A program made the position numbers and the translations under genes. From Otis tarda (Eukaryota > Chordata > Aves > Otidiformes > Otididae), in contig CM048552.1 of assembly GCA_026413225.1 (NCBI GenBank), positions 135,669,053 to 135,733,052 of the forward strand: a stretch of 64,000 nt of DNA. The letters are read 5' to 3'. Of the stretch, positions 13,561 to 40,689 are shown piece after piece. The notes under the pieces are model-generated. The model was not told the DNA's origin. It saw only the letters and a list, made by a program, of their open reading frames with translations, and made no database searches. Every line of letters begins with the position of its first letter. Position 1 is the stretch's first letter.

Positions 13561-13574
13561 ATGTACTAGTTGCT

Positions 13575-13830
13575 ATTTTCTGTGAGCCCTGCTGTTTCTA
13601 GACTCTGCCAGCAAAGGTTCTCAGCCTTGTCCAGCTCCCAGGCCCCTTCCTCCAGACGTGGCAGGACCCCCTTTCCTCCAGGCCAAATTGAAGCTCAGCG
13701 CTTTCCCTCTTGGTCATCACTGCCTCTTGGGTGTCCTAAGCAGTGCATGTGTTTAGGAAGTGCTTTGTGTGGCCATGGATACAGAGCCAGCGGCTTTGTC
13801 AGATGGGGCCATTATAGCAGTCAAAATAAT
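13575..13830. repeat. GC-rich repeat, copy 1 of 3 (3' side of TLR8 copy A)
   Basis: This stretch is clearly more GC-rich than its surroundings and is related to 21290-21535 and 33060-33272. Shared blocks include 'CAGCTCCCAG', 'CCTCCAGGCCA', 'AAGCTCAG', 'CACTGCCTCTTGGGTGTCCTA' (all but the last base of that block shown up to 20 in copies 1 and 2) and a closing GTGTGGC...ATG.A.AGCCAG. It abuts the transmembrane-coding remnant of TLR8 copy A at about 13830. It may be an unclassified avian interspersed element or part of the duplicated unit. Confidence 0.8.
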
Positions 13831-14585
13831 AGGAGAAAAAGCAACATATTGCTGAAACTTCACCCAGGCGTGTAGGTCTGCATTCACTAATGTCTAACCT
13901 GCCTGGTGTTCTAGTATCATATAGATTAGGTCAGTTGCCAGTCATGGGATGCTTACGTTAACATTTACATACAGCCCTTTTGAGAAATCAGGAATTGCAC
14001 AGACACATTCAGAAGGATTCTCTTTGAAGCCAAGTTGTACTAAATAATTAAACTTATTAGACAAGACAGTTGTTAGCTTTATGTGATGAAGGTGGCTGTA
14101 ACGACAGAGATATGTTACACTGCTGGCCTCGAGAAAGTCCATCGGCAAGCTAGGATAACTTGTTATGTTGAAGCAAAAGTACCTGAAAGGAGGGAATATT
14201 ATTGGCAAGATTATTATACATATATTTTAATAATATAAAACATTATTACTATAATTATATGACATTTATAATTTATTACACCTAAAATTTTGCTTTTCAG
14301 CTTAGATGCTTTATTTGAGGGTTTAAGACTGTGCTCTCCATTCAAAAAGCACTGTAGTTCATAGTTGTTTATGAATAGTTTGGATAAATGCTATGGACCA
14401 TCAAGGAATTTCTGGCAGGAAATATTATAAGGTTTGTTGTGGGATATGTCAAGATACCTAGTCTACAAAGGTTTTTAAACTGATCTGCATAAATGTTATC
14501 ATCATATTTCCATAAATAGCTGAGTTGGTTTCCATCAAACACTGACTTTTCTAGAGAGTTGTTGACTAAAATAATCTCTGTGAGT
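13830..14585 (-). pseudogene. TLR8: TLR8 pseudogene copy A, 3' ectodomain segment (LRR, LRRCT, start of TM)
   Basis: Minus-strand continuation of copy A beyond the CR1 insertion. At about 14550-14370 a translation resembles TLR8 LRR sequence ('VFDGNQLSYLWKYDDN', then 'FKNLCRLGIL', where functional TLR8 has the GNRLDILW and FKGLKNLTRLDL stretches). At 14040-13942 it shows the C-terminal LRR cap, with 'ENPSECVCAIPDF' followed by '...NVSIP', close to the TLR8 cap CTCDIGDF...KIP. A degraded hydrophobic stretch ('FSPIILTAI') near 13850-13830 fits the start of the transmembrane segment. Several stops and frameshifts break it, and no TIR domain follows: the sequence goes straight into the GC-rich repeat. 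TLR8 is normally an endosomal single-stranded-RNA receptor; this copy cannot make one. Confidence 0.85.
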
Positions 14586-14589
14586 GTAA

Positions 14590-15570
14590 AATGTCAAGTA
14601 ACCTGATAAGTAGCTGAGGTTGGAGGGAACCACTGGGATCATCTAGTCCAATCCCCTTTGCTTAGTACTGGATCAGCTAAGGTAGGTTGCTCAGGATTGT
14701 GTCCACTTGGGTTTTGAATGTCTCCAAGGATGGAGACTCCACAACCTCTCTGGGCAACCTGTTTCACTCTCAGGTTTTTTTTCTTCTGAAGATGAAGGTT
14801 GTGGTCTTGATTTTGCTTTGTTCCCTCCACTCAGAATCCTGATCTCCACCATCTCATGGTCACTGCAGTTAAGGTTGCCCCTGACCTTCACATCCTTGAC
14901 CAGTTCTTCCTTTTTTTGTAAGTACGGGATCTAGAACAGTGCCTGCCCTTGTCAGCTCCTCAATAACTGTGTCAGGAAGTTGTCATCAATGTACTCCAGA
15001 AACAACCTGGATTGCTTGTCCTGCATTGCTTGCACTGTGTTGTGCCTTCAGCAGATATCAGGGTGGTTGAAGTCCCCAGTGAGGACCAGGATGTGCAAGC
15101 TTCCAATTGTTTGAAGAAGTTCTCATCTATTTCTGCTTCCTGATCAAGTGATCTGTAGCAAAAACCCACAGCACTGTCACTTACGTTGACCTGCCTGCTC
15201 TCAACTGGCTCATCATGATTTCTCACATACAGAATAATGCCACCACCTCCCCATCCTGGCCTATCCTTCCCAAAAAGCCTGTATCCAAGATCACAGCGTT
15301 CCAGTTGTATGAGCTGTCGCCCCATGTCTCTATGATCCCGGTGAGGTTGTAGTCCTGCAGCAACACACAGACCTGTAGTACCTCCTTTTTGTTTCCTATG
15401 CTGTGGACAGCACTGTGTGCAGCACTTCAGAGAGACATCCACATGTGATTTCCAAAAAAAAAGTGCGAGGGCTTCCACCATCATTCTGTCCTCTTGGCAC
15501 TTCCTTATTCATGTGCATACACTTGAGATAGACCTTCTTGAATCCTGCTTTGTTGCTTTCAAAGTCTTAA
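14590..15570 (-). mobile_element. CR1 LINE inserted in TLR8 copy A: endonuclease part joined to the 3' end
   Basis: Read on the minus strand, the high-coordinate part (about 15490-14800) encodes pieces of the CR1 ORF2 apurinic-type endonuclease in two frames: 'GIILYVRNHDEPVESRQVNV', 'GFCYRSLDQEAEIDE', and then 'VKVRGNLNCSDHEMVEIRI'. At 14600-14780 the sequence switches directly to the CR1 3' tail (GGTTGGAGGGAACC...CATCTAGTCC on the plus strand). The reverse transcriptase middle is missing, so either one element lost about 2-3 kb inside or two CR1s are joined. It separates TLR8 LRR sequence at 15590 from the next LRR sequence at about 14585, so it sits inside the former coding exon. Confidence 0.9.
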
Positions 15571-15589
15571 AAAAAAAGAGGTAGAAAAA

Positions 15590-16180
15590 ACTCAGCTTAT
15601 GTGTATTATCTCTGCCACAGTAAAGTACTGCCTATTTTCACAAAGATCCAACACCCCTGAAGTACCAGGTTCATGAAAAGCACGAGAAACTAAATCCAGT
15701 TTACAACTGAAGAAATCTAAATATTTCAAATTAGATTGGAAGATAAAATTGGTACCATTCAGAGCTTGGCTAATGCTGTTAAAAGACAAATTCAAACACA
15801 ATATTCTCTAAACATTTTCAAATTTCTGTTTGTCAGTGAAGAAAAGCACTGTTTGAACTTTGAAGGATTTACCCAAAATGTTGCACCGAGTTTTCAGCAA
15901 AGATATATCATTGCTGGGCTTATCTTCTGCCAAGGGCATATTATTTACTCCAGGTCTGTATCTATTTTTGACTGATTGCCTTCTAATAGTACTGCTGTTG
16001 CTGCCCTGTGATAAAGGTGATATTCTGCTGCCAGACAAAGAAGCTTAGTGAAAGATGGAGATCAACTGGCTTGATAAACAGGACTCCAAAACTGCAAGTA
16101 GGAAGATTTTTCAGATTTCTGAAGGGCTTTAGCTGTTCATTATAAAGCCCTTGGGCATCAAAACCTTTTAAATACGGTTA
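15590..16180 (-). pseudogene. TLR8: TLR8 pseudogene copy A, middle LRR and Z-loop segment
   Basis: Minus-strand remnant of the LRR horseshoe. About 16175-16060 reads 'QLKPFRNLKNLPTC' and 'LFIKPVDLHL', matching the region before the Z-loop. 16038-15990 has 'SGSRISPLSQGSNSS', corresponding to the TLR8 ENRISPL start of the Z-loop. 15860-15810 has 'LFFTDKQKFENV', then an in-frame TAG at 15808-15810. After it comes 'CLNLSFNSISQALNGTNF' and 'LKYLDF' to about 15600, the LRR just after the loop. The phrase order is that of TLR8. The frame is open for long stretches but has the TAG and earlier stops. CR1 then interrupts it at about 15570. Confidence 0.92.
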
Positions 16181-16184
16181 CTGG

Positions 16185-16595
16185 AGGGAAGCAGGGTACA
16201 GGAGTAGACAGACGTGTTTATGTACCTGGGATTGCACTTTTCTTCCATGATGAAAAGCTGCTCTCAATGACTATGAGTCAAAGCTATAAATGACACAGAG
16301 TAAAAACTCACCCCAAGTCCTACCATTTGTTGAGTAGCTGAATCCAAGAGGAGCAGGTTTTAGCCATAAAGCCAACAGGGAGGTGTAGCTGGAGGGAGGT
16401 TTCGATGCCACCCAATTTCCTGCGTAGTGGTGAGCAGAAGGTGGAGTTTGGGGGATGAAGCCAAGGGACAACTTGGACAGGAGACTCTTCAAGGAGAGGT
16501 ATGATCATGAGGTATGGAAGAAGCAACACTCTATGAGGAAAGGGTTGGGATTTAGGGGGCTTTAGAGGGCTCTGAGGTTTTTTTTTTCTTCTTCA
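16185..16595. other. non-TLR sequence replacing the N-terminal middle of copy A
   Basis: Between the N-terminal piece (ends about 16600) and the pre-Z-loop piece (starts about 16180), roughly 270 codons of TLR8 ectodomain are missing. About 410 bases are present instead that I cannot match to TLR8 in any minus-strand frame, nor to CR1. It may be an insertion with a flanking deletion, or TLR8 sequence too decayed to see. Confidence 0.5.
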
Positions 16596-16599
16596 GGGA

Positions 16600-17040
16600 T
16601 TACTGTAGAGCTGATTCTCCTCCAAACAGCTCTGCCACTGTGCAAGTGCTGAAAGAAATGTTGCTGACAGAAAATGTGCAATAATTTCTGAAATTCTGAA
16701 TAGTTAAAGGCAATGGAAATCCAGCTGGTATTTTACATAAACGTTTTTCATCAGTCAGCAATTCCCTAGGATTTGCTAAGTTAGCAAAAGATTCATCTTC
16801 ACTTTCCACCATTTTCTTGCATAAATCATGAGGCATTTCAATTGCCTTTGGATAGTGGTTTCTGCCTAGATTTACTTTCATCAACTTGTTCAGGCCCTGA
16901 AAAGAATCTCCTAAAACTTTCTTCTCATGGTTCTCTGGGAGTTTCAGTTCAGTTACCTTTCCATGCTCTGCTTTTGCGTGATGCATGCTACAGCCAAGAA
17001 AGACAGAGGAATTGTTCACTACAACATTAAGTGGTGGCAT
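16600..17040 (-). pseudogene. TLR8: TLR8 pseudogene copy A, N-terminal LRR segment
   Basis: A 146-codon frame on the minus strand matches the N-terminal ectodomain of TLR8. It has 'NNSSVFLGCS' near the LRRNT cysteine, then 'GKVTELKLPEN', 'DSFQGLNKLMKVNLGRNH' (TLR8 NESFQGLQNLTKINLNHN), an 'ESFANLANPRELL' repeat and 'LCKIPAGFPLPLT'. No signal peptide is visible in frame upstream. It ends at a TAG/TGA-rich stretch where the next repeats are missing. The frame is still open, but the rest of the gene is broken, so an active product is not expected. Confidence 0.9.
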
Positions 17041-17044
17041 TTTG

Positions 17045-20000
17045 GGTACTTGGGCTCAGCTAAAATTTTGGAAATATCAAAGTGCAATTCATAATGGACT
17101 AATGACCAAGGCATTCAAGATTCCTTTAAAAGTGAGAATTTTATTTTGCTGTTAACAGGTACTTAGCACTAGCTTTAAAAATGTCATATCATAAATACAT
17201 GTAGTTATGGACTGAGGTTCTTCTAAGACATTTCTATACCTCGGTTTTGCTATTCCATTCAAACAATTTAAAACAGAGAGGCTAGCAATCGGATTTGAAT
17301 TCATGGAAGGGCTTTGCAGCACAAGGATTGCACAGTTCATCTGAGTTTTCATTGCTGCTGTAGAGAAATTAGAGGCTTCTCTAAATAAATACCAACAGCC
17401 TAGACAACAGAGATTGCTTAACAGAAATAGGATTTATTACTAAAGGAAGATGAAAATGCTAGAAATCTCTCATCTCTTTGAAAGGCTGATCAGACTTTTG
17501 TTACTTTATATGTTTGCATATCGGAATGTGTTTGTATTGCTATTATAATGTTCCAAAATCTGTTGAAGACAGTAGAAGAGCTCTCATTGAATGTGCCAGG
17601 TTGGGTTTGCAGCACCAGCATTCAGTCATCTTTATTTCCCTGATCAGCAAACAACAAAGGAATAAAGGTTCCTTTCCTTTTTGTGGATGGAAGGTTAAGT
17701 ATCATGGAAAGAGAGATGTACCAGTCTCAAAACTACAACAGTATTTTGAAGCATAATAACATTTCCAAGAAAAGACAAAGCCAAGACAATTAGGAAATAT
17801 TTAAGAACATTATTATACAAAATAATACCTGCATATGGTTAGAGAGAAGCTATCTTCAGACAGAGAAGCATACGAAAAAGAAGGGAAAAAAGGGAAGAAT
17901 GTGAGATGAAAGAGATGAAAGGACTATAATCAAAAGATAGTCATTAAAATTGTGATTAAGTGGTGATACCATAGCAATTCAACTGGTCTGACCACAGAGA
18001 ACATTGTGCTCTGGAACTAGAATGCAAGAAAATGCAATAAAACAGAATTTTAAAATATCAAGAACAAGCAAATATATTAAAAGCATTTGAAGTTTAGAAT
18101 AGTCTGAAACAAAGATGAAAAACATCTGTAAAACAAGATTACTATGCTTCAATGGCAGCACTCAATATTTGATTAAAATACAGTGCTGTCTAAACAAATA
18201 TACTTTTGAGAAATATTGGAAAGATCTTATGTTTTTCACCATGATAAGATTACCTGGGACACTTCATAAGGCAATCAGAGCTTGTGTAATACTAAAAAGC
18301 ATACTTTTTTATAAAATATTTTTTCCAGAAGTGCAGTGTTTTCCAGTCTGGAGCTGTGAGATTGATTCCAATCATACATACACAAAGCTATGTGAGAATA
18401 GAAATCAGTGCTAAGGAAGAGCAGAATCAGCCTCCGATTTCTCAAATTCTTGGCAGCATTGTATGTCCTTTAAAAAATGAAAATACTCATCCTCTTTATC
18501 TCTCTGCCACAAAAGATGTCATTCCAATAAAAGTTAGCAAAAGATATATGCATCGTAATGGCAAAACTGGAAGCTGTCATGTACTGATCAACTGACCCAG
18601 AGAGGCCAGTGTCTAGATGGAAGTGATCTGTGGTTTTCTAGTGTTTGTCCTGGACTAACTGGAAGTCACATTAACTTTAATAGAGTAATTTCTATACTTA
18701 GCTGGTGGAGGAATATTAGTTCTAATGACAAATATGGCCAAGTGGGACATAACAGCACAATGGGCTGTTACACTAGGGAAAGATCAAGAAGCTGGTCACC
18801 CACTCAGGAGGTAAAGCACAAAGGAGAGGAAATAATCTGAGCGCTGGGCCCACATAACTCCATGCTTCCCGGCTTAGTACCTTAAGGATTTACATACATG
18901 TATATAAGACCAAATGAACTCCAGCCCCAAGCTTTCCTTATGTACGTGTACATTTATGTCTATTGCTCTCATAGCTCTTAAAAACAGAATACGCATTGGG
19001 CATCTCTGGAAACTTCACTGATTATTTAAAAGATTATTCTCCAAGGCAATGCTGAAAATTTTCCAAGGAAGAGCTAGCAAATAAGCATGAATTTGAAATG
19101 CCCGTACTAAATATTATAAATAAAAGTATAAATAAGTTTTATTCATTTTATGTACAAAGCCTGCAGCTTTGTACATAGTTACAGCTGCATAATTTATTCC
19201 CACCGGCCTCAGAGCTTTAACAGCTTCTTTTCTTCTCCTTCCCTTGGACGAGCTATTTAGAGAAAGAAAGTGCCCAGATGCTTAAATGGTTGAAACTTTT
19301 TCCAGTCTCAATTTCGGTGGCATTTGGGAAATTCTATTGCTTATGATTATGTTTGGTGCTATGAAATTATTTTCATAGCATGTACTCTGAAAGTGGCTCT
19401 GAGTCCATCAGTGAGGATGCAGCTCACTGAGACGTTTATAAAAGCCTCATAAAAAAGATAGAGACACATAAGCCAGAAGAGAGAGAGAGAGAGAGAGAGA
19501 AGCAGCCAAGCTTTTAGAGCACGAGAAGCTGCCTTCTTAGCTCTGAGGTGTCAGGTGGGGCAATCCATGGGTTTTCTGTCTACTTACCTGAACAATAAGA
19601 GACTAACAGCCACCTAAGGAAGGATGAACAAGAAAGAGGGACCTCACCTTCTGGCAGCTGGATGATTTCTGCTGACATATACTGTTTTTCATTTTGCTTT
19701 TTTAGTGAAGAGTGGGATGTTCCCATCGTTGCTGGGATTATGGCATGTTACCTGCAGAGCCAGGAAGGTCACAGCTTCAGTGGGATTCAAGGAATGAAGA
19801 TGCTTAAGCAACATTGGAGTCAGGAGAGCAGTAAGAAGAAAGCAGACTCTAGCTTTCAGGAGGAAGCTTGAAACAGAGAATCTACACCATGGAAATGTAT
19901 CCAGATCCCTCAAGAAAATGTAAGTCTCTGAATTCTGAACACTCTCCAGAGGTTTAAATGCCTCACATCCAAAGGCTGGAAGCAATAATCCAGGACTAGC

Positions 20001-21280
20001 CTGACAGTAGGGTGTGTACAAGGGTTTTCTGCTACCAAAGGAAAGTGAAAATTTGTTTCCTTCCTTCCCTGATAATCAGGGCAATAACTTGCTCCTATGC
20101 AAGGCAAACTGTTCCCACTGCACCCATATTTCAGCATGAATTTGAATGAAACTTCTGAGTGCCTCTTCTGTTCTGCTGGACACAACTGTAAACTTAAGGA
20201 CAAATTCACAAGTCGTAGGATTTGCAACAGGTCCGAAGGAAGGAAAGAAGACCGAGAACTAAGGATGAAAAAAAAAAAATCACTCTAAAGGGATTACCTG
20301 CAATTCACTTATGCATAATCCCATCCTCTAATCAGAAAAGAAGCAAATAACCATTTTCCATTGTTTTTGCCAGTCACATCAGGACAGGGATCAATCCTGG
20401 CCCTGTTGTATTCAGCTCAACAGACTTAAACACACCAACATCTACTCAGAGCGGTGGGTAGGGGCATAAATCACAGGAGGTGGGCAGGACTGCGAGCATG
20501 CCTCTCTCCCAGGGCACATCTCCTACTGCTTGGCATAGGGATGCCTCCACTCAAGGTGCTGTCTGTTTTGAACTCCACCCTAAGATGCCTTTCTCTGTCC
20601 CATGCTCTCTAGGGGAAACCTAGCTGAAGACAGAGAACTCAGCTCCCATAGCTGGCTGTTGCCTTAAAGATTTTTGTCTTTTGGGGCTTACATGCCTGTA
20701 CCACTTTGAGGATTCCCCTCAGCTGGGCTGCAAGTAGTTAACTTTGTTGTGCCAGTGTGTCTGATCAGCCAGTTTCTGTGATATTTTCACACAGGGAAAA
20801 GAGCCAGATAAAGCCACAGTTAGCATGTCTGAATACCAAGGCTTGCAAGGGGAGCAAGCCTTGGAAAATGATCCTAATTACTGCATGCAGCCAATGAGAG
20901 AAGGGCAGAATCACCTGGAACTATCAATGGCAATATCTGGTCAATAACTTCAATAGCTTGAATATTGACTGGCTGCTGTTCTGGGAGATCCCAACAGATC
21001 TCCCCTTGGCAAGATGAGGCTCCCTGTGCCTTTCATCTCATTATCTTGTTATCTCAAAGTACTTTACAGCTACAAAATGCTTTGCAAAGCAATTCTTATT
21101 ATCTGCATTGCACAGATGATTAAGGCAAAGGGTAGAGAGGCTTAGAGAGTACTCCTAGGTCACTCAGAAAGAGCAAACAAATGTCCTACACGTAAGCAGT
21201 AAACACTTAAAAGCAGAAATTTCTTTGAACCTTAAGGTGATGCCTTTCCCTGTATCTCTCTTAAGCAACCACTGGCTGCA
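17045..21280. other. spacer between TLR8 copies A and B, no gene seen
   Basis: AT-rich sequence lying 5' of copy A and 3' of copy B. The minus-strand frame 17352-17152 (66 codons) resembles nothing I know. No TIR boxes were seen in the part directly 3' of copy B (about 20.3-21.28 kb). It contains a (GA)n run. Confidence 0.55.
19478..19501. repeat. (GA)n microsatellite
   Basis: Twelve uninterrupted GA units in an otherwise ordinary AT-rich stretch. Confidence 0.95.
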
Positions 21281-21289
21281 TTATCCAAA

Positions 21290-21535
21290 AAGTGGGGGCA
21301 AGTGTTGCCTTTCTGCTGCCTGGACATGCTGTGCCCGGCTCCCCGGACTTTCCCTCTGGGCACAGCAGAACTGGCTTCTCCTCTTTTCCTCCAGGCCAGA
21401 TCAAAGATTGGTGAAGCTCAGTCACCACTGCCTCTTGGGTGTCCTATGCAATTTGTGTGCCGTAGGGAGTGTTGTGTGTGGCTGTGGATGCACAGCCAGG
21501 AACTTCGCTGGACAGGAGCAGTAGGTGTAGTGAGC
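21290..21535. repeat. GC-rich repeat, copy 2 of 3 (3' side of TLR8 copy B)
   Basis: Related to 13575-13830 and 33060-33272. It shares 'GCCTTTCTG', 'TGGACATGCTGT', 'TTCCCTCTGGGC', 'TTTCCTCCAGGCCAGATC' and 'CACTGCCTCTTGGGTGTCC'. Its high-coordinate end (about 21535) directly follows the transmembrane-coding remnant of TLR8 copy B, the same relative place as in copy A. Confidence 0.82.
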
Positions 21536-21539
21536 ATCC

Positions 21540-21735
21540 CAGTAAAATAAATGCTTTGTGATTGCGTTAACAACGATGCTAATAACAGTAAATAGGAAAT
21601 CGTGTGAACCTCTACAGACGAGCATAGATAGCGTCTGTTTGTTCCCAGAAGGTGCCGGTTCTTTTTGGACTCTGGGAATAAAGGCACAAGGACTCTCAAG
21701 AAAGTTAAGTGTGTTATTAATATCCCACAAAAAGT
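21540..21735 (-). pseudogene. TLR8: TLR8 pseudogene copy B, LRR cap and transmembrane segment
   Basis: On the minus strand this reads 'FIPRVQKEPAPSGNKQTLSM', which follows the TLR8 LRRCT order ([20 protein letters not shown]). A hydrophobic run 'FLFTVISIVVNAI' and 'KHLFYWDAHYTYC' come next, nearly the TLR8 juxtamembrane motif HHLFYWD. The frame stays open across it. It then runs into the GC-rich repeat, so the cytoplasmic TIR domain is absent. This short motif distinguishes TLR8 from TLR7, whose intact local gene has HLYFWDMW. Confidence 0.88.
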
Positions 21736-21739
21736 GGTA

Positions 21740-22250
21740 ACAAGTTACAACATCTTACGTCCATTCTGATGCTGGGAACCCCAAAATGATACAGCATCAG
21801 ACAGAACTCTGGCCATGGCATGTTGCACTGCCCAGACTTCCCATCCGTGGTGAGGTCCACCAGCTTGTTGTCTTTAGGGTTTTTATAGGATTTTCTTAGA
21901 AGGAAAGCAGCTCTGTTCATAATTTTTACTGTGGTATGAAAGGTTGTTTATACAAAAACATGCTGCTTTGCTTCAAGATAAAATCAAGAACGTGCTGGTG
22001 GCATTGTCACTGATGACAAGTGCGTGCTGCCTATGGACTCCTTGGTTACAACAAGCCAGCTGTGTTTGTCGTACAGCAAGGGATGTGGGCAGCACGACAC
22101 AGTCCCCAAGGCCAAGTTGTACGTGTACTACAGCATAGCACAGCACAAGCCTGCGCTGCTGTGTGGATCGCTATCTCCTCCACATGTCAAGTAGGACCCC
22201 CACAGAGTTATTTTTTTATGTGGTTGTATGGAGCTGCACAGCAATCTGTT
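21740..22250. mobile_element. unclassified ~500-bp insertion within TLR8 copy B
   Basis: The cap-forming cysteine region of copy B is expected to continue from about 22290 directly into the segment at 21735, but about 500 bases intervene with no TLR similarity. The stretch has its own balanced base composition, unlike the AT-rich neighbours, and open frames on both strands (for example plus 22020-22358), none recognised. I infer an inserted element; no terminal repeats or target duplication were identified. Confidence 0.5.
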
Positions 22251-24420
22251 GTTGCTGCCTGTGATATAAAGGTGTTAACAGGCTGTGTCCATTTGACCAA
22301 GTCATCATTTTGTCAGTCTGCCATGTCACTCTGTGTCTTTTCACGCCTTGCAGGTTGACTGACTCTCTCAGCATGATCAAGGTACCGAGGACAGTCTTTT
22401 TCAACAGCATTTCCCACAAAAATCTCTGAAATCCTGTTAAGCCCTATCAGCAGAGTGAGCCAGGTGTCTCCGGGTGAAGCATCAGTAGCCATGACAAGGC
22501 CAAAACTCTGCTCAGACAGCATCACACGAGTAAATGCACTGAAGGGTGCTCAGTCAAAGGCTTTCACTTTGTTTCTTTTCACAACTCGCATAGCAAGCAC
22601 GCTTCGGTGAGGATTGTTACCTGTTTAATGTGGGATATACCAAGGTGTGTTAGGTTATTGAGATGCTTAAAAAATTTATGTCTTTCCCTTATCTATCTGT
22701 TGCCCCATAAAACTTTGAAGTGGTTTCCTTTGAACACTGATTCCTCAGGAGGATTGTTGCATGGATGGTTGTCTCCACGTGTAGCAAATGCGTTCCAACA
22801 CAAGCTAAAAACCTTCAGGCAAGGGAGATTTTCCGTAAATGCCAGCTGAGATAAGAGTCCTGCTTGTTGTGTCTCAAGTCTAATACTTCTAGATTTCTAA
22901 TTTTTTATAAGGCAAAACTACAAGTAAAATCAAATATACGGTTTGACAGACAGATTTAAATATTTGAAATCACATAGATTGAATTGAGTGCCATTCAAAG
23001 CCCAACTAACGCAATTTATAGACAAATTCAATCAGGTAATTTCCCTGAAGCTTATTAACTAATCTGAGCTTAAACTGATCTGAGTTAATGAATGTGAGGC
23101 TTTTGAAGCTCAGATCCCGTGCTTTGCAAGGTCAAGTATGCTGTGGTCTGAGAGCAGATAAAATAAATAGTCCATTTTTTTTTGTCCCAGCAAGTGAATG
23201 AATGGCTCAACTAGTCATTTTTTCACAAAGTTGTATGGATTTTTTCCCCAACAAATTCTAACGGAACTAGTCTTATCCTAAAGGCGACATCTTCCCAATT
23301 AATTTCTGTGAAATTATTATCACCGTGAAAGATAATGAAGTTGTGTGTGGTTTTGTAAAGTTGATCCTAGAACAAAAAAAGCCTAACATTTTTAAGGAAA
23401 CAGAGTTTTAGAGTGATGTTCAGATAAGTCTTCAAAAACATAACGTGGAAGATTTAATCAGTTTGAAGATACCAGAGAAGAAAAAGACTGTGTGATGTTT
23501 AGATACTGTCAGTATATTTTTTTTCTCTGAATTGAAAGATAACTTCATCCAGAAAGGTCAAACTCTGCAAGAATTTAAAGATAACTTCATTCCTTAAGCA
23601 ATTAAATGTAAGGTGTAAAACAGTTCTCTGGGGCATGCTATGAAGCCAAATGGCAGGTACAACAGTTAGAAAAGGGGTAGCAAGAATTCAAGTGCTGAAT
23701 TTGTTAAAGGTTTTGCAAAGCCAGTGAGTGTTTGGATGGAAGTGTTACCCATACAGGACTCACATACAAAATGAGCATTACAGCACCTCAAATAATGCTT
23801 GCTTTGATCAAAAGCTTCCATATTAACCAGTATATTTAAATCCCATTGATGAATGCTCTTTATTTAGTTAAACAAAGGTAAAGTTCTGTTCCTGAGGAAA
23901 GCAGATGGAGAGGTGCTCTGGTAAAGCTGCTGAGAAGAACGAATGGTTGAATCAGTGAGATCTGCAAAAGCCCCATCTCCTGAATCAAACATTTTTCCAT
24001 GGGGATTGCTGCTAAGTTCTTGCTCACACAGAGCTCCTGTAAACAGAATTCCCAGAGCAAACTCCTGGTAGTGCGAACAGCACTGCTGACATTTAGTCCT
24101 AGTGCAGCAATGGGAGATGAAAAACCCCTGGGTACTTCGTGTGGATTGCTACTGAAATGTAATTTCTCTAATTCTGTTAAGTTTTTTTAAAAAAGGATTA
24201 GGATAGAAATGACCTGACACATTATGGTTAAGGTTATTCTTTAAGATTTGTGCAACTTGTGAAAGATGTCATCAGAAACTGCTTTGTTATGAATATAGGC
24301 AAGTATCAAAGTGACAACATTATCATTTATTTCCATTTATTGTTAAAACCTTCAAGCTTCAGTGAAAGAATGTGAAGGAATGGACGATTTCTGCTTCTAA
24401 AATACATGGCAGTTTTCTAG
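22250..24420 (-). pseudogene. TLR8: TLR8 pseudogene copy B, nearly complete LRR ectodomain
   Basis: The minus strand carries, in the right order but in several frames, remnants of almost the whole TLR8 horseshoe. They include 'NVVTLILAYIHNKAVSDDIF' (first LRR, about 24330), 'LEKLHFSSNPHEVPRGF' (24150), 'LHLLSSGTELYLCL' (23885), 'CNAHFVCESCMGNTSI' (the cysteine insertion, about 23775), 'VLHLTFNCLRNEVIFKFL' (23610), 'RYVFEDLSEHHS' (23430), 'TFINSDQF' after the Z-loop (about 23080), 'LNLSINCVSWALNGTQF' (23040), 'FKHLNNLTHLGIS' (22650) and 'LLIGLNRISEIFVGN' (22460). Many stops and frameshifts show long decay. TLR8-specific wording and overlap with copies A and C make it a separate paralogue. No function expected. 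Confidence 0.88.
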
Positions 24421-26579
24421 GGTAGCAGAAAATTTCTGGTCCATGAGTATCATGAAGAGCAAGCAAAACAGATAGTATTGGGTACAGCCATTTTATTTCA
24501 AGAGAAAAACAGTCTCAACAGGTTTTCTCAAGAGAGAACAGCTGGATGAATGGCCCATTAATAACAGCAGTAATATGATAGTTCTGTCCTATATTTCTAA
24601 TAATCACATTCTGGATCATTTTTAATTACACAAAGCATGAATTTGTAAAAAGGTCACAAGAAAAAGTTAGCTACTTTATAAATATCACGGATTCTAGTTG
24701 TTTACAGGTTTAATAAGATTTTCCCTCCCAAGGTTAAAAAGATTGCGTTAAAGGAATGAATATTATCTTGGGCTGTTTTCATGGGCAGTATTTAACATTG
24801 CTTATACTGACTGATCAGTCACATTGGCACACAGCTGGGGACAACAGGAATAATTTGGAGATCAAAACAGTTGGTGGTGAGAACCCAGTATCCACATTGT
24901 ATGCATTTTAGGGAGGTTTATTTTAGACAGATGCTGTAGTCTAGTCTTTTGACTGACTGCCCATTAGCTGTGCTTCTGCAGAATGTCTTCCAGCTTTGTT
25001 TCAGCTGAGAGGAAACCAGAGGATGCATCTCAAGTTCCACATAGAGAACCGAAGCACAGGAAGGACAAAGAAGTGTGAGAGTTGCTTCCAATTGCATTCA
25101 ATCCATGTCTAAACAAAAATGCTGCTGTGGATACAGCCTGCGACAGAAAACGGGCTCATTTGTGGCTTCCAGCCCTAAAAATGTTCAGCTACATAGCATG
25201 TCTAATCTGAAGAATGACATCTATCTGCTGGATGTAAATTGCTGAAGCAGAGAGGTGATGTATGTATCCTCTCCAGAGGAATATCTTCAGCTTCACCTTA
25301 TTCCTTTGTTTTCAAGGACACTGTATAGCAATTAGCTGCACTGGACACTACCCAGAAATAGCTTGTTAAGACTTCCTCCAAAGCCTGTTTTAAAAAGTGC
25401 AAACCCCTCTGGAACTATATGCACTAAGGGACTTCCACATTGTGTTACCTGCTTCAGTGGAAAGAGAGGGAAATTACTCTGTGATAGTTGTTCACACCAT
25501 GGTTAGAAACCCCTGCAATACTGGGATGCATGCTGCATCCTTGGGTTTGTCCACACTGAAGTCTTAGTTTAATAAGTCTTAGTGATGGACCTAACTGAAA
25601 ATGGATAACATCCCATCTTCAGCAAAAACATTAAAAATCAAACCGTTTAATCTTGTTAAAGAGATAGAGAACTGAACTGTATTTAGAGCTTTTTGGAACA
25701 TAAACTGCACCTCTTTCCATTAACAGACAGGTGAACTGAGTAGCATTTCAAACAATATTAGTCTTTGTAAGCATAGCTAAAATATCTTTATTTAAAAAAA
25801 TTATATGCTTGCATGTTTTTAGAATCACAATATACTTTTTTGTTACCTGTATTTTTTTAAGATTTACTCTCAAAAGGGAGGTGGTTTAGTATCAATGAAT
25901 AAAAGATGTATATATTAAAGCAGCTTCCAAGGATAAAATTTTAAAGTGAAAATTATCAGAAAAGACAAAGAAAGTAATTCCTCTAGGCAATTTTAAAAAG
26001 CATAAGGAAAAGAATGGAAGCATATAAACTTCTAAACTCCTAAAACTCTTCAAATGCTGATAGTAAAATTTGGGAAATAAATTAATGTAGATGAATTGCA
26101 GAGGGGAGAGAGAGAGAGAAAGGAAGCCAACAGAGCAATAAGCAAAAGTTTTATTAAAAATGTTGTTCTAGATACTTACACAGCATAAATGAATTAGTGG
26201 AAGAATACAATCTCCACTCAAAATCCTATGAGATGTAGCAAAAAAAGTGCATTCAATGCATCAAAAGAGACGAGAAGTGTTCTGTTTACAGAATGGTCTG
26301 TAAGCTAGGTGACATGTATCTATAAATCTCAGAAAAACAGAAGATCAACACTCAATCTAAGTACAAAGCTGTCTAATCAAGCCATTAAAAAGCCACACAC
26401 AAACAATGCTTATTCTTTTCACTACCACTGAATTACCTGGATGACTTCTTAACCTAGGCAGGCCTGGGACTCAGCAGCAGCAGTTGTTCTCAACTTTTTG
26501 CTCGTTAAGGTGAAGGCTTTTCTAAATATATCCCCAGGCTGATGCTGATGCCACTTACTCAGCAGTAAAATTAATGGTA

Positions 26580-26770
26580 GGTGTGGTCGCGATGTCTTGA
26601 ATTCCGTGTGTCACTGAGCACGCTGTTGGAAAGCGGACGTAGATCCCTTCAGCTGCCGTTGGTGGTGGTGGGTGGTGTCCTTCCTTCCCTGGGCGGTGTT
26701 TCGAACGGAGGAGCAGAGGGGCGGGTAGCCCCGCCGATAAGAGAGGCAGCTGGCACAACTCCACTGCACC
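26580..26770. promoter_or_regulatory. isolated CpG-dense stretch (possible small CpG island)
   Basis: Roughly a dozen CpG dinucleotides lie in under 200 bases, with GC-rich words such as GGGCGGTG, GGGGCGGG and CCCCGCCG, inside several kilobases of CpG-poor AT-rich DNA. Open frames cross it on both strands but show no known domain. It could be an unannotated promoter or enhancer, or a young CpG-rich insertion such as an LTR. Nothing in the sequence decides this. Confidence 0.4.
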
Positions 26771-29008
26771 TGGGCCAGGCAGTGCTGGCAGCATCTGGCT
26801 GTGGTTTAGTTTCACCTGCCCAGGGTGACACAGTGGCCACACTGGCTCTGGTATCAGCCTTTATTGACTTGTTGCAAGAAGAGATAGGTCAGCTTTAAAC
26901 TGGGGAAGGTCTTGTCAGAGATGAATATTCTGGTAAACTGCTCAGAAGATACAGCATAAAACCACCGCAAAGGCAGATGATTTTGTCACTCACTGCCTGC
27001 TCATATTCCTTAGCATGTTTTTCGCTGCACTGGGCGCCAACAGCAAAAAAAAAAGCTGCATGAGCTTACGGAGTGCAAGTCGCTGTGGCTATTATTCGAC
27101 AGCCACAGACATGACTTTGTTGCATACGTGCACAACTTTACTGGCTCACTCCTAAAGCAGAGGAATCTTAGAGGTGATTTAAAGGAGCACACTTCAGACT
27201 CAAATCCTTAAAAGTCCTGAGGTGCGTAAATTTACCTTTCCAAGGTAGCAGCATGCTGAGTGAAATCCAAGTTCTGGGGCACCTCAACTGCAGCTGTGAT
27301 GTAAGCACTAAATTCAGCAGAGAGATCCAAAATAATATTTTCCAATCACTCCCATATCCACCTCAGATTTTGCACGAAAAATGTGCACTGAGGCACATCA
27401 CCTTGGCTGGACAGACCATCTCTGGGCTGGACGCCTCTCTCAAGCTATTGGGGAGGCAGAATTTCAGCAGTGTGACATTTTTGTCTGTCTGCTAGTCTTC
27501 GCTTGGTGCACTTTGACTGCATTTTAGGAGAGCGGCGAAGTGGTAGCATTTTCATTTTATTTTGAGCAGCAGCATGCTTCCCGTCTGGCAGTTGCAGACC
27601 TAGCTTAAGGAGGAAGTGTTGTTCTGTGCAAATACCTCCCAGGGTGGTTTGTAAGTGACACTTGGCAGCTCCAAACTCTGCGTGGATGGTGAAGAGTGAG
27701 CAGTGCTGTTCTTTGTGGGATGGTACACTGTTCTTTTTCCTAAAAGAAGAAAAATAGATGCCTAAAAAGTTAATTAATACAAATAAAGCTATTCACATTT
27801 TCATCTAGAAGGGCAGGCTTAACTATTTGAGCAGTTGGCTTTTTTTGCCAAAAAGACATTCTGGCTGATCCAAGTTTGCTGCTTGGTTTAGCAAAGATAG
27901 AAAAATTCACTTTCCCTTATTTCTGTCCAGGCTCAGTGTTTGAAGCCAGTAACAGAGCTGATGATAGGACAGTGGGGCTGTGGTGACCAAGATTCAGTTC
28001 CCTCCTCTGCACATGGGTACATCAACCCACAGCTGTCGGAAGTGAAGGGTGTAGGATATTCTGAATTGTTCGTAAATAGTTGCTTCTGCTCCCCTTCGCA
28101 CTGAGTAATCAAATATTTACAAAAACAGCAATAACAGTTTGGGGGTTGTTTACTGTCCTATTCTGTATGGGCTTTTTCAAGATGAAAAATTAGGTTGTTT
28201 CATTTCAAAATTGCCACAACAAAAGGTTTTCACTGGTTTCAATTTTTATCTTCAACATCTTCTAGCTTGTTGAACAAGATTCATAAACCTGATGTGCAGA
28301 CAGGTAGTCTGAATTCTTCACCAAATATTCAGCTGCTATAGTAACCAAGCTCACTCCTGTACCTTTTCAGTTTAGACAGCGTAAGGGAAGTCACTCTTCT
28401 GATCATGAACTGAAGCAGGCACTCAAAGCAGCTCCACTAAATTTACACGCTGATGGCAGGAGCGTTAGCATTTATTTGCTTTCCGTGGGTGCAGGATAGA
28501 ATTTTCATATTATTAAAAAATATTCTGCTTTGCTGATGCCATCACACAGGTTTGAACATGAGCTACTGTTTGACAAAAAAAAATGGGGTAAAGAATTGCT
28601 TTTCAGTGTTTGCTCAGGATGTGAGGGGAAGATTTAGGGCAACAGGAGTGTCTCAGCAGCAGTGCTTTAGCCAAGGAGAAAATATAAAGGAATGTAGGAG
28701 ACTTTTATCTCGAGCTTATTTTTGTATTTTTTTCTGGCTCAGGGTTAGTTTCACAAATCCTGCTACAACAGAAGATGTCATTAAATAATATTTCTGAGTC
28801 TACAGTACAGTATTTCCTGTACTGACAAGTATTCATCATTTGTATTGTGAAGGGTATGTGCCAGGCTAAAGCAGGAAATGCCTGTGATTTCATATGATCC
28901 ACACATCTGCAATGTATAGGTGATCCTGGGTTTCATGGACGTGAGCTATGGGATGAAACTTGAAAAGATGGTCCAACCAGTGCAGTCATCATATGCCCTT
29001 AAACAGGG

Positions 29009-29056
29009 CAGGTTTTAAATCCAGAAAAAACTGACAGCAGGTTTTAAATCCAGAAA
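29009..29056. repeat. 19-bp direct repeat
   Basis: The sequence CAGGTTTTAAATCCAGAAA occurs at 29009-29027 and again at 29038-29056, separated by 10 bases. This is a small local duplication with no visible element between the copies. Confidence 0.9.
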
Positions 29057-29343
29057 TTGTGGAGCCTAGTTCAATTAGAGGCAGATTTCAAAAAGTATTT
29101 AGAGACTTGAATTTATTTGGGCTTATGGAAGCATTTGACAGCTGCCAGTGCAGTTCACTCTGGAACATCTTGAAGGTCTATTGCATGCCAACAAAAATCA
29201 TGAGCTTCATCAAAGTTTTATGCCAAGGTTCTTCTTGAACAGTTAAGGTGAATGGGAACTTGCACAAATGGGTTAATCAAACTTGCCTGTCAAACACAGA
29301 CTCATTTTTTCAAAACGCCTTTGTCAGACACTGACTTTATTAC

Positions 29344-29374
29344 AAAAAAAAAAAAAAAGAAAAAGAAAAAAAAA
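29344..29374. repeat. A-rich tract
   Basis: A run of A with single G interruptions ending at AAGC. It could be the tail of an old retroposed sequence, but none is recognisable upstream. Confidence 0.85.
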
Positions 29375-32300
29375 GCTTAAAATGATATGGAGCAGGCATG
29401 GCAAACCAGAAGAGCACTGTACCAGAATATTAAAATGATGCTATCAGCTCAACTCTTCTAAATTATAAGTCCAGACAAAAGCCTTAAGGACAGTCTCTCC
29501 CCACAAAAGTAGACAAAGATTCAGCCAGGGAAAACATCCTCCAAAAATGGACCTACTGAGAAATCGAGCTGCTCCCACTGTAAGTATTACAGTAGGAAGC
29601 AATGCCATGCAAAAGGGAAGTCAACTCTAACTCACAGGAGGATGCCAATGAAGGGTGGCTACGTGAAGAGAAGAATGTTATCAAGTACCAAAGTGGTGCC
29701 TGGCCTTTGGCAGCTTAAACCAATAATCACCAATAATCTAGACCATATTTGTCCCAGGTTGTCCTTACCTACAGCCAAGGGCAGATGTGCTCCATAGTCT
29801 GTCATGTACCTCCACTCTCCAGGTCTGGAGACCTGCTGGAGGGCACCTATCCTCCTTGTCCAGCTGCACTTCTGGGTTTCCTCCCAATGGGAACCCAGGG
29901 GCATGCAGATATTGTGTATACCCAAAACTTTTCTTCCCCTGTGCAGACAGGATACGTCCATGGAGCTTTTACGAAGACCATGCTACCGGCCACAGAGTGG
30001 CTTTCAGAATAGGGACTGCCTACATGTCCCCTGTTGAAAACACACCAAAGGCAGAAGCAAGTGCCTAAATGACCTTGAAAGCAAATGCTTCAGAAGAGGT
30101 CTGGAAATTAGACAGACTGACTGTATAAAGAACATGAAGACTCAAAGAAGATAGCAGCAACTGATCTCCAAAGTTATAAAAAAAGAAAATGGAAGTGTAC
30201 TGTAACTGTATTGCAGATGAAGCCACATCAGCTGCTAGAAAAGGAACTGACGGGACAAATAAACCCTTTACTAGACACTACATTGGTTAAATGCGTGCAG
30301 TTCCTCTTAAGCAAATAACTAGCCAAAATTTCAAGTTTTGTAGATTACTCCAGATAATGGGAGAACCTGATGTTTGAGTCAGGCATGTTCTTATTTTAAT
30401 TGTTCTGCAAACTTTTATTCATAAGAATGGACACGGTCTTTTTCTTTTGACCATAACAAAAGTGGTCCCAGCCACAGTAAATATTTTTCTCTTCTCAGCA
30501 CAAGCCTCCTCTTGGTCAGGACCTGCAAAGACTCTTGCTGGCTCTTTCCCCATCCCACAATGCTGCCCTTGCTGGCTTTGCAGGCTTCTCCTATGAGCTG
30601 TCTCACACTGCTCAGCTCTCCTTCCCCTCATCATGCAGCCATGCATGTGGAGTCACCTGCTGAGGATTATACTCAGCAAAGCATCTTTTTCTAAGTAGTA
30701 TGAAATTCCTGAGCTGCCCTTGCCTTTCTTGTAAAAATCAGTGATGGCTGGCTGGAGAGTACTATTTACCTGTGGACTTTCAGGGAAAAGTTTAATGACA
30801 TCTCATAATCACTTAAAATAAAGAGGTGATGCCCAGCAGCTTCAACAAGGTGTCACACAGACTGCAGCAGGATAGGCATCTGACCTTGTCTGAGACATAA
30901 GGATATCTGATAGTGCAGAAATTCACTACTATTCAGCTAGCTAAACGTGCAGATAGGTATCAAGTAGGATTTACAAAAACGCTGGCACCTACATTGCTTT
31001 ATAAAGCTGCCCCTCGGGACCTGATTCAAAGCCATTGTAGTCATGGGGAAATTACCACTGACTTCATTAGGATTCAGTTTGGATTAATGCTGCACACTCC
31101 TTTGCTGCCCTTTGCTGTCTCTGTTCCTGTGACTTGAATTGTTTCCTCATGGCATTGCAAAAAAAAAAAAAAGGATGGAAATGTTAGCAGCAACGCATGG
31201 GATATTGAATACTGGTTCTCCTGGTTTTGACAGTATCTGTTCAATATAAAATGGAAAATACTAATTTTAAACCTTAACGGAATTGTTCTGCTCATATCTT
31301 TAAAAGACTGCTACGTCTTTAAAGAACTTATCTAAATCAAAAGTGAAATATTCCATCTTGTTTGAAGAGGAATAAGCATGTATGCCACTTACTTGCAAAA
31401 ATGATGAAACCTCACTAATTGAAGTAGGCTGACTGAAAATCTCTCCTGTGTTCCTGCAGTAAACGTCATGTCCATGGAAATCATGTGCAAGAATTTGATT
31501 TCTGCATCAGTGTAGAATATATAAAATCTACCTTCAGTAAAGCTTTTCCAATGTATCAAAATGTCTGATGACAAGCAGCTAGTGTCAAAAGCTCCTTCTT
31601 TATCTATCCCAGGCACCAAACCAAATACATTAATTAAAACATGCACAGTGTCAAGCTACCTGAAGAATAAATAAGGGGACAATTTTTTTTTTTTAAGAGT
31701 AAGTGGTTGGATACTGTCAAAATGGGAAGTGAAAGAAGGATTAAAGGGAAGTCTTAGGCTTTTGATGGAAGAAAAAAAACTAAGAAACAGGAACCAGTTA
31801 TTTTGCAATTTTATAGTGTTGGAGAGAGGATGCGGAAGATAAAGTGAAAACAAGTGTAGTGGTGTACGACTGGTCTGCAATGGTGAAGAGATAATTTTGA
31901 ATTTAAAAGAGTTTAAACCTGTGATTGTTAAAGAGGAGTACTGCGTGCAGAACTGCTCTGCATCACAGCCAATGTCTGTCCCAAGCTTGTTACTACGGGC
32001 TCTTACCCACAGGGTAACCAGCCTCACAGAAGATCTATTTCCAGCATCATCTCTACTTGCAGGCAGAGGAGAGGAGCTGGCCACAGAAAGGCTGATCTCA
32101 GGAATGGAGAACTGCCGTTCATGGGCACGTCCCAGCATAGTGTGGGGAAGGCAGAGACTGACCATAAGTGAGGGAGGAATCTCACTACTGGAAATAAGTA
32201 AAGTTGTCAGTCAGATAGGTTTGTTCTCTTTGATCTACCTCCTCAGTTTCAAATGTATGGACACCAAAGATTTTCTATAGCCACGTGTCTTTTGGGTGTG

Positions 32301-33059
32301 CACTATCCCTAGGCAGTCAGTTTCAGATGCGCATATGAAGTGGTACAGGGCAACCAGCCAAGTCTATAGCATGCATGCACAGCATGCATGTAAAAACTGT
32401 GCAACACCTCCAACATCACTGGGAAACATCAGGTCTCCTGTAGGAAACCTCAATAGCTGAGCTGCCCATGAGCAGTAAGCCTGATCCACCCCAGAAGTAT
32501 TAGTCAGATGGCACACGCACTATATATGTTTGTGACGCCCACCATGAGGCTCTGCACGGTTGGCTTGGTTGCCAGCAACATGGTAAAGACACATTATAGA
32601 TGTTTGAAAACTGGGCTGTGAACAAGCTTCGCAGTTAGCCTTTGCTACCTGTGTAAGATATAAATTGTACAGCTGATGTAGGATTCATTTGTTGAAACAC
32701 AGAGGTCTACACTTGACCTTTTCATGAGTCCCCTTGCAACTGGTGGAGAAAAAAAGGGTGCTTCCAAAGTGTAAGTCATCTCATTCTAAAGTAGACACTG
32801 GAACAAGGTAAGATGACTACAGTGGCTACGCTACATACAGCAGCCCAACAGGCACATGTCCAAAAACGGCAGCATAAAACTCCAACAAAATGGAAATTTA
32901 TGACATTTCTGAGTTGTTGGGGTTTTTTTAACAGCAGTCTATAGGACTGAGAGTTGCCAATTATAAAAGTTTTAACAACTCCTTCCTGGCCAGGGATGCC
33001 TCTGGCAGCTGCCACACAGCCACAGCCAAGGCACCTCAGGGGAGCCTTTCACGTGTTTC

Positions 33060-33272
33060 TTGTGGAGTCAAACAGTGCCTTTCTGTCCCCTGGACATGCT
33101 GTCCCCATCTTCTGACCATGGCCATGCCCAGCTCCCAGACTCTTCCCTCTGGGCCCAGCCAGACACGCTTGTCTCCCTTTCCTCCAGGCCAGATCCAAGC
33201 TCAGGGCTTTCCTGGTCAGTCACTGCTGCCTCTTGTGTTTCCTACACAATGTGTGTGTTTGGTTGACTGAAT
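33060..33272. repeat. GC-rich repeat, copy 3 of 3 (3' side of TLR8 copy C)
   Basis: Shares with 21290-21535 the blocks 'GTGCCTTTCTG'-like, 'CTGGACATGCTGT', 'CTTCCCTCTGGGC' and 'TTTCCTCCAGGCCAGATC', and 'AAGCTCAG' with 13575-13830. It lacks the last about 50 bases seen in copies 1 and 2. It meets the LRR-cap remnant of TLR8 copy C at about 33280. Confidence 0.8.
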
Positions 33273-33279
33273 TAATGCA

Positions 33280-34050
33280 GAATATTACAATTACAAGATA
33301 GGAATTTTGGTTTTCTGGAATGAACAGTTGTAATGAAAACAGTTCCCTTTTCATTTAAGGGAATATGTATAATTTCCAGTAGCAATGTTGTCTAAGGCTG
33401 GTCACAAATCAACCCTAGATACAGTGCACTGCAACTCTGTTAGTGAACTCAGTAGAAATTTTAGCAATTTGCTCAGAATCAGAGTGAAGGAGCTGTGTGC
33501 AACTGTATAGCAGCCTTTAATTGTATAGCCATTTGTAATCGGTTCTGGCTTAAATCAAGCAGCTTCATGGATTTAAAGTAGCTAAGTTTTTCCCAGATAA
33601 CAGTGTGTACTCAGTTATTGAGATACAGTTCACTTAAGCTTCTTGGCAGATTTTCAGATGCAGAGGGATATATATAAAAAGACCATTATAAGAAAAGTTA
33701 AAATGTGTCAGATATTTGAGATGCTTAAACCATCCCGTATGATGCATGCCTCCATTTCCACATACGATAACAAGAAAGATCTCCCTGAAGCCTAATTTTT
33801 GAACTTAATTTTTGAAGAGAAGAACTTCAGATGTTACTGATGGAAAAATCTCATTCAAGTTTCCATTGAATATCTTTAATTCAGGAATGTTATACAGGTT
33901 CTGTAATAAATATGAGGTTCTGTTCCAAACTTGCCACGAAAAAGTATTGTTTGTTATAGCCGAGGCCTAATGCCTGGAAACAGATACCTGTTCAGGGTGG
34001 CAGATGAATCCCCTCCCGGCCTCCCTCACCTTCCTAGTTGCCGTTACACA
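33280..34050 (-). pseudogene. TLR8: TLR8 pseudogene copy C, 3' half of the LRR domain
   Basis: Minus-strand remnant covering the C-terminal LRRs. About 33985-33940 reads 'LGLGYNKQYFFVASLEQNLI' (TLR8 [20 protein letters not shown]). About 33760-33690 reads 'FKHLKYLTHFNFSYNGLFIY', followed in a shifted frame by 'LPRSLSELYLNN' and 'WEKLSYFKSMKLLDLSQN' to about 33540. About 33330-33290 has 'KGNCFHYNCSFQKTKIP', resembling the cap GNPFECTC. Stops (for example the TAA at about 33812) and frameshifts are frequent. The 5' half is absent: an LTR abuts it at 34055 and no N-terminal TLR sequence was found beyond. It overlaps the same receptor region as copies A and B. Confidence 0.82.
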
Positions 34051-40683: not shown

Positions 40684-40689
40684 GAAACA

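What the first reader, a model, noticed from the sequence alone, without database searches (positions are those of the whole stretch)
13830..34050. Three tandem, decayed TLR8-like genes downstream of an intact TLR7
Minus-strand remnants at 17040-13830, 24420-21540 and 34050-33280 each match TLR8 and overlap in receptor position. All three contain the region after the Z-loop to the LRR cap, for example 'LWKYDDN/FKNLCRL' in A, 'FKHLNNLTHL' in B and 'FKHLKYLTHF' in C. So they are duplicates and not fragments of one gene. Birds are known from chicken and duck work to have a TLR8 broken by CR1; a multi-copy array of remnants suggests that the bird ancestor carried a small TLR8 family that was lost as a whole. 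Reptile genomes are reported to have several TLR8 copies, which would fit, but that link is inference.
Basis: partly seen in the sequence, partly recalled or inferred. Interest (0 to 1): 0.88.

Follow-up and report, generated by a model that had tools for sequence, protein, structure and literature searches.

The report
Three dead bird TLR8 paralogues
Downstream of the intact virus-sensing gene TLR7, this bird carries the ruins of three different TLR8 genes, each matching one of three TLR8 genes that turtles (and for two of them alligators) still have, so the loss of TLR8 in this bird's lineage was the loss of a small gene family, not of one gene.

Summary
A frameshift-tolerant search with a reptile TLR8 profile finds three decayed minus-strand TLR8 copies (scores 751, 831, 240; highest of 52 shuffled chunks 64.6) plus intact TLR7. 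They overlap in 147 profile columns, so they are separate genes. They are not bird-made duplicates: A belongs with reptile TLR8-1 (ordinary TLR8), C with TLR8-2 (turtles, alligator), B with TLR8-3 (seen here only in turtles). Tree support: B+TLR8-3 100/99, C+TLR8-2 100/100, A inside turtle/alligator TLR8-1 98/97; one clade of A+B+C is rejected (p 1.4e-5). Assignments hold when each remnant is aligned without its own clade. So the common ancestor of turtles and archosaurs already had three TLR8 genes; this bird's lineage lost all three, and the third is not turtle-only as a review states. PRPS2 upstream supports the locus; A is split by a CR1-like insert, as reported for duck. Limits: one unnamed bird, one alligator genus, two TLR8-3 rows, C short, places just outside their clades not rejected for A and C, time of loss only roughly bounded.

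The parts
42853..45966 (-). Intact TLR7, single open frame of 1037 residues
   Evidence: ORF list; PDB TLR7 matches; 91% to Sarcoramphus papa TLR7
59044..60255 (-). Two PRPS2 coding exons (60255-60094 and 59130-59044), read as the last two; the expected upstream neighbour
   Evidence: tblastn of P0008, a predicted PRPS2-TLR7 fusion: 98% over 54 aa and 100% over 29 aa
33287..33979 (-). Remnant C, TLR8-2-type: LRRs from profile column 565 to 786, with stops and frameshifts
   Evidence: neutral profile score 240 for 33979..33398; extends to 33287 with the TLR8-2 profile; 43-47% to TLR8-2 against 33-37% to TLR8-1 and TLR8-3
33112..33259 (-). TIR-domain scrap of remnant C (far end taken from the DNA match)
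   Evidence: profile hits from 33259 on, scores 109-124 with three profiles, highest of 6 shuffles for each 55-68; DNA 73% and 70% like the TIR scraps of B and A
21327..24336 (-). Remnant B, TLR8-3-type: LRR domain, part of the transmembrane segment and part of TIR; 11 stops in the kept codons and 14 frameshifts in the alignment
   Evidence: 44% to TLR8-3 against 33-38% to TLR8-1 and TLR8-2; tree 100/99
15539..17049 (-). Remnant A, 5' part, TLR8-1-type (profile 27-605); contains the 146-residue open frame 17040-16600
14591..15538 (-). 948-bp insertion that splits remnant A, CR1-like
   Evidence: gap in the alignment; its 3' part, about 14608-14766, is 67-68% like four repeat copies elsewhere in the window; the family name CR1 is recalled from its coding text, no Pfam hit
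13623..14590 (-). Remnant A, 3' part (profile 606-936): LRRs, LRR cap and part of TIR
13539..13628 (-). Probable C-terminal scrap of remnant A (profile 1019-1048)
   Evidence: tblastn 12 of 22 identical, E 0.82; TLR8-1 profile score 69, highest of 6 shuffles 57; weak alone, but in the right place and frame order
34077..35189 (-). Interspersed repeat near the broken 5' end of remnant C
   Evidence: 72% over 1180 aligned bases to an inverted copy at 56359-57438

Best explanation
The three remnants are unitary pseudogenes of three old TLR8 paralogues that stand in tandem after TLR7 in the order TLR7 - TLR8-2 (C) - TLR8-3 (B) - TLR8-1 (A), all on one strand. The duplications happened before turtles and archosaurs split. 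In the lineage of this bird all three copies stopped being maintained and decayed by stops, frameshifts, deletions and insertions of repeats, while TLR7 stayed intact. Shown here: the three overlapping copies, their separate orthology and the intact TLR7. Inferred: that the loss lies on the bird stem, that the three died in about the same period, and that TLR7 now covers this branch of endosomal RNA sensing alone.
For: Whole-window scan with null. Best scores by clade among 25 single proteins: A with all 7 TLR8-1 rows (843-1220, any other row at most 756), B with both TLR8-3 rows (1240, 1275; others at most 939), C with all 4 TLR8-2 rows (340-361; others at most 235). Identity from one neutral alignment agrees, and still agrees when the remnant is aligned with a profile that leaves its own clade out. 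Blocks of 25 columns compared with TLR8-1, -2, -3 and TLR7: B nearest TLR8-3 in 26 of 29, C nearest TLR8-2 in 7 of 7, A nearest TLR8-1 in 22 of 31. Tree: B+TLR8-3 100/99, C+TLR8-2 100/100, A inside turtle/alligator TLR8-1 98/97. AU tests: A+B+C one clade p 1.4e-5, A+B 2.5e-7, B+C 0.003, A+C 0.0027; B with TLR8-2 0.0076, B outside TLR8-2+TLR8-3 0.010, C with TLR8-3 0.018, C with TLR8-1 0.006; A with TLR8-3 1.4e-5, A with mammal TLR8 0.007. Simulated decay of known paralogues (protein level, alignment error not simulated) was assigned to the right clade in 100 of 100 in each of 9 settings. Without any remnant, a turtle-only origin of TLR8-3 is rejected, p 3.6e-53.
Against: The remnants are very long branches (1.5-1.7). 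C aligns over only 182 columns and a place just outside TLR8-2 is not rejected (p 0.20); likewise A just outside TLR8-1 (p 0.11), and in the tree with A alone its smallest starred set is A with all 7 TLR8-1 rows (99/98), not the inner set. In A, 8 of 31 blocks are nearest TLR8-3 and 1 nearest TLR8-2. Columns fixed but different between the clades give a thinner signal: A matches TLR8-1 alone in 17 of 64, TLR8-2 alone in 3, TLR8-3 alone in 3, none in 26; B matches TLR8-3 alone in 9 of 57, TLR8-1 alone in 3, TLR8-2 alone in 2, TLR8-1 and -3 in 11, none in 23; C matches TLR8-2 alone in 1 of 13, TLR8-1 and -2 in 5, none in 6. The letter make-up of B is unlike the rest. TLR8-3 rests on two turtle species. 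No second bird could be read.
Confidence: 0.88

Rival explanations
1. Bird-lineage tandem duplication of a single TLR8 after the split from crocodiles, followed by decay of all copies.
For: The three lie in tandem on one strand, and their TIR scraps are 70-73% alike in DNA.
Against: One clade for A, B and C is rejected, p 1.4e-5, and so is each pair; each matches a different reptile clade. The TIR likeness is expected: in four pairs of reptile paralogues TIR identity is 86-92% against 49-57% in the ectodomain.
Confidence: 0.05
2. Two ancestral genes: A from TLR8-1, and B and C both from TLR8-2 by a later archosaur duplication, with B drawn to TLR8-3 by long branches.
For: C is short, B is long-branched and odd in composition, and few columns are diagnostic.
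Against: B+C rejected, p 0.003; B with TLR8-2 rejected, p 0.0076; B nearest TLR8-3 in 26 of 29 blocks; TLR8-3 predates the turtle-crocodile split without the remnants.
Confidence: 0.06
3. The hits are one TLR8 broken up by insertions, as chicken and duck TLR8 are described, or retrocopies of TLR7.
For: A is indeed split by a CR1-like insert.
Against: 147 profile columns are present three times and 657 twice. TLR7 is the worst-matching group for A and B and among the worst, level with mammal TLR8, for C.
Confidence: 0.01

Closest known systems
Disrupted TLR8 of chicken, duck and goose (review PMC7157566, passages seen)
   Same: TLR8-like fragments downstream of an intact TLR7; CR1-related insertions (6.1 kb in chicken, a 1.4-kb CR1 between fragments in duck)
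   Different: Described there as one TLR8 gene; here three copies of three paralogue lineages are separated. Whether the chicken and duck fragments come from one or several paralogues was not testable here.
TLR8, TLR8B and TLR8C of turtles and crocodilians (review PMC9951749, passages seen; its reference list holds Dolby et al. 2020, which is not held here)
   Same: Three TLR8 lineages; most likely TLR8-1 = TLR8, TLR8-2 = TLR8B, TLR8-3 = TLR8C
   Different: The review says birds have no TLR8 ortholog and TLR8C is specific to turtles; here a bird keeps remnants of all three, and the gene tree puts TLR8-3 before the turtle-crocodile split. That the names correspond was not checked.
Loss of TLR8 in birds (PMC6946030, passages seen; PMC9808068, one passage, says 'in some birds')
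   Same: No functional TLR8 reported in birds
   Different: That survey kept full-length genes; in the passages seen, remnants were not resolved into paralogues

Membership tests
TLR8 (TLR7/8/9 family) | Closer to TLR8 than to TLR7 | tested here: met
   A, B, C: best TLR8 clade 39-47%, TLR7 26-31%; tree
TLR8 (TLR7/8/9 family) | Locus between PRPS2-TLR7 and TMSB4X (order recalled) | tested here: inconclusive
   PRPS2 exons and TLR7 found upstream; TMSB4X not found in the window with a recalled 44-residue query
TLR8 (TLR7/8/9 family) | Ectodomain LRRs, transmembrane segment and TIR | tested here: inconclusive
   Traces of all three in B only; A has LRRs and part of TIR with a doubtful transmembrane stretch; C has C-terminal LRRs and a TIR scrap
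Functional receptor gene | Open reading frame | tested here: not met
   Stops in kept codons / frameshifts in the alignment: A 9/11, B 11/14, C 2/3, and large gaps
TLR8-1 ortholog (A) | Groups with reptile TLR8-1 | tested here: met
   98/97 with turtles and alligator; alone 99/98 with all 7 TLR8-1 rows; a place just outside is not rejected, p 0.11
TLR8-3 ortholog (B) | Groups with turtle TLR8-3 to the exclusion of TLR8-2 | tested here: met
   100/99; alternatives p 0.0076 and 0.010
TLR8-2 ortholog (C) | Groups with TLR8-2 | tested here: met
   100/100, 100/99 alone; a place just outside not rejected, p 0.20
Bird-wide ancestral loss | Same three remnants in other bird orders | not testable with these tools
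   The DNA collections offered are prokaryotic, viral, plasmid and metagenomic; the own-genome search did not complete

The most novel reading that the evidence does not exclude
The archosaur ancestor had a full TLR8 cluster (TLR7 - TLR8B - TLR8C - TLR8), TLR8C is not a turtle invention, and the stem lineage of birds lost all three RNA-sensing paralogues before modern birds arose; the published chicken and duck 'TLR8 broken by CR1' may be pieces of different paralogues read as one gene.
Probability: 0.55. Interest if true: 0.72.

Novelty: new member of a known kind. Interest (0 to 1): 0.62.

Why it matters
In the reviews seen, bird TLR8 loss is told as one gene broken by a CR1 element. Here it is the loss of a three-gene family of endosomal RNA sensors, with TLR7 left, in a lineage that hosts many RNA viruses. 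It also moves the origin of the third reptile TLR8 back before the turtle-archosaur split. Both points can be tested at once in the many published bird genomes.

Tried and rejected
Rejected: a single fragmented gene (overlap); TLR7 retrocopies; bird-specific duplication. A fourth TLR8 remnant: none above 75 in the neutral scan. In one search, ten stretches outside the main remnants were tried with three single-clade profiles; 13 of 30 scores exceeded the highest of their six shuffles, 4 of them by more than 15. Three of those 4 are the TIR scrap of C; the fourth (TLR8-1 profile, 26979..25955, 74 against 58) is not repeated by the other profiles and is treated as chance. One of the other nine is the probable C-terminus of A at 13625..13539 (69 against 57); the rest, up to 80 against 68 at 31838..28899, are not claimed, though more of them pass than six shuffles would lead one to expect, so very weak further scraps are not excluded.

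Left open: whether the split of TLR8-1 from TLR8-2+3 is older than the mammal-reptile split; the trees lean that way but a reptile-only duplication is not rejected, p 0.13. Led nowhere: Pfam on ten ORFs gave nothing above cut-off (sub-threshold LRR_8 in A, two sub-threshold hits in the ORF 34316-35164); Rfam gave 0 matches; the desert tortoise genome paper of 2017 holds no 'TLR'.

Rows and residues left out: of 242 protein ids held I used 28 in trees (26 TLR8/TLR7 of named tetrapods, a sturgeon and a manta ray), chosen before the remnants were placed; one of the rest is the window's own P0121. Before identity counts and trees, poorly scoring stretches of the remnant alignments were dropped: kept 792 of 809 codons (A), 757 of 813 (B), 184 of 190 (C); one search drops none. 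One search was a first run with looser settings and gave the same best clades.

Timing, crude: A and C keep 0.56-0.64 of the identity that turtle and alligator orthologues keep with each other, which in a neutral simulation needs about 0.24-0.29 substitutions per site; at an assumed, recalled bird rate of 2e-9 per site and year that is 120-145 million years, with a wide error. Observed stops (9 in 792 codons of A, 11 in 757 of B) are fewer than the simulation's 17-22 per 800, at least partly because the aligner penalises stops.
Full report
What is there. The window holds an intact TLR7 (45966..42853, 1037 residues), whose closest listed protein is king vulture TLR7 at 91%, with birds filling the top of the list; so the source is a bird, not named. 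Two PRPS2 exons lie upstream, the usual neighbour (recalled); TMSB4X was not found. Human TLR8 by tblastn hits three further minus-strand chains.

Is it more than chance? I built a reptile TLR8 profile that weights three reptile clades equally and aligned it to the DNA with an aligner that allows stops, frameshifts and long insertions. Scanning both strands in overlapping 5-kb chunks gave, above a score of 75, only TLR7 and three remnants: A 751, B 831, C 240; the highest of 52 shuffled chunks was 64.6. A and B share 657 profile columns and all three share 147. A is cut by a 948-bp insert after profile column 605, B has inserts of 163 and 383 bases, and C lacks its 5' half, near an interspersed repeat.

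Getting the right relatives. A search limited to a well-kept piece of A gave 5 proteins at E up to 0.001 among 167 candidates: two turtle TLR8s, Chinese alligator TLR8, a manta ray TLR8 and one unnamed. A profile of the first three gave 859 matches, of which 120 are listed. Among the listed reptile TLR8s a tree shows three clades: TLR8-1 (turtles, Chinese alligator, tuatara), TLR8-2 (turtles, American alligator) and TLR8-3 (Pelodiscus and Carettochelys). Pelodiscus and Carettochelys each have all three. Because the list stops at 120, further TLR8-2 and TLR8-3 rows may exist unseen.

Which remnant is which. Against 25 single proteins, A scores best with all 7 TLR8-1 rows, B with both TLR8-3 rows, C with all 4 TLR8-2 rows. 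From one neutral alignment: A 39-43% to TLR8-1 against 30-35% to TLR8-2 and TLR8-3; B 44% to TLR8-3 against 33-38%; C 43-47% to TLR8-2 against 33-37%; TLR7 26-31%. To rule out that the aligner chose frames that favour a clade, I aligned each remnant with a profile that left out its own clade: A 38-41% to TLR8-1 (next best row 34%), B 39-40% to TLR8-3 (next 36%), C, over 141 columns, 47-50% to TLR8-2 (next 42%). In blocks of 25 columns the expected clade is nearest in 22 of 31 (A), 26 of 29 (B) and 7 of 7 (C). The few columns that are fixed but different between the clades point the same way, thinly: the expected clade alone is matched in 17 of 64, 9 of 57 and 1 of 13, any single other clade alone in at most 3.

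Tree. With all three in one tree of 31 rows, B joins TLR8-3 (100/99), C joins TLR8-2 (100/100), A lies within turtle/alligator TLR8-1 (98/97), nearest alligator without strong support (87/43). One clade of A+B+C, and every pair, is rejected. One remnant at a time, over its own columns, gives the same clades, for A as A with all 7 TLR8-1 rows (99/98). Not rejected: C just outside TLR8-2 (p 0.20), A just outside TLR8-1 (p 0.11). Random decay of alligator or turtle proteins was placed rightly in 100 of 100 in each of 9 settings; this control does not simulate alignment error.

What it means. Three TLR8 genes existed before turtles and archosaurs split. Without any bird remnant, a turtle-only origin of TLR8-3 is rejected (p 3.6e-53); remnant B adds an archosaur copy. 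A review says that TLR8B arose in crocodilians and turtles, that TLR8C is specific to turtles and that birds and squamates have no TLR8 ortholog (PMC9951749, passages); the likely primary paper (Dolby et al. 2020) is not held and I know it only from recall. A survey reports TLR8 lost from all birds (PMC6946030, passages), one paper says from some birds (PMC9808068, one passage), and a review reports chicken, duck and goose TLR8 as fragments with CR1 or other retroelements (PMC7157566, passages). In ten searches of the held library and the passages read I saw no paper that resolves bird TLR8 fragments into paralogues; most subscription papers are not held, and most listed papers were seen as listing only.

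Limits. One bird. The claim about the bird ancestor is inference from the degree of decay and from the reported absence of TLR8 in birds. The timing estimate (about 0.24-0.29 neutral substitutions per site) is rough. The order of the three genes in reptiles was not available.

Changes made on re-checking: the recalled human TLR8 is confirmed over 27-827, not 829; TLR7 is not the single worst group for C; the diagnostic-column counts, the dropped codons and the above-null scores are now told; a probable C-terminal scrap of A is added. These did not change the main odds; one rival was lowered from 0.07 to 0.06 only so that the odds sum to one.

Noticed in passing
13624-13790, 21320-21499, 33112-33260: The TIR scraps of the three remnants are 70-73% alike in DNA; in four pairs of reptile paralogues TIR identity is 86-92% against 49-57% in the ectodomain, which suggests strong constraint on TIR or gene conversion between paralogues before the loss.
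   Followed up: partly
34077-35189 and 56359-57438: Two inverted copies of a repeat of about 1.1 kb, 72% alike, one of them close to the broken end of remnant C.
   Followed up: no
8756-9166, 35539-36394, 40574-40689, 54826-55128, 61306-61505, 62192-63024: Several copies of one interspersed repeat, read as CR1 by recall from the coding text; the insert in remnant A carries the same 3' part.
   Followed up: partly
P0122-P0242: TLR8-2 and TLR8-3 may have split from ordinary TLR8 before mammals and reptiles parted, with mammals losing them; the trees lean that way but a reptile-only duplication is not rejected (p 0.13).
   Followed up: partly
P0042, P0045, P0046, P0056, P0059, P0064: Six different TLR7-like proteins are listed for Geospiza parvula, perhaps TLR7 duplication as reported for some songbirds, perhaps assembly or annotation pieces.
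   Followed up: no
15-437: Long TCTCC-type simple repeat at the window start, seen as an LSSPL-repeat ORF.
   Followed up: no
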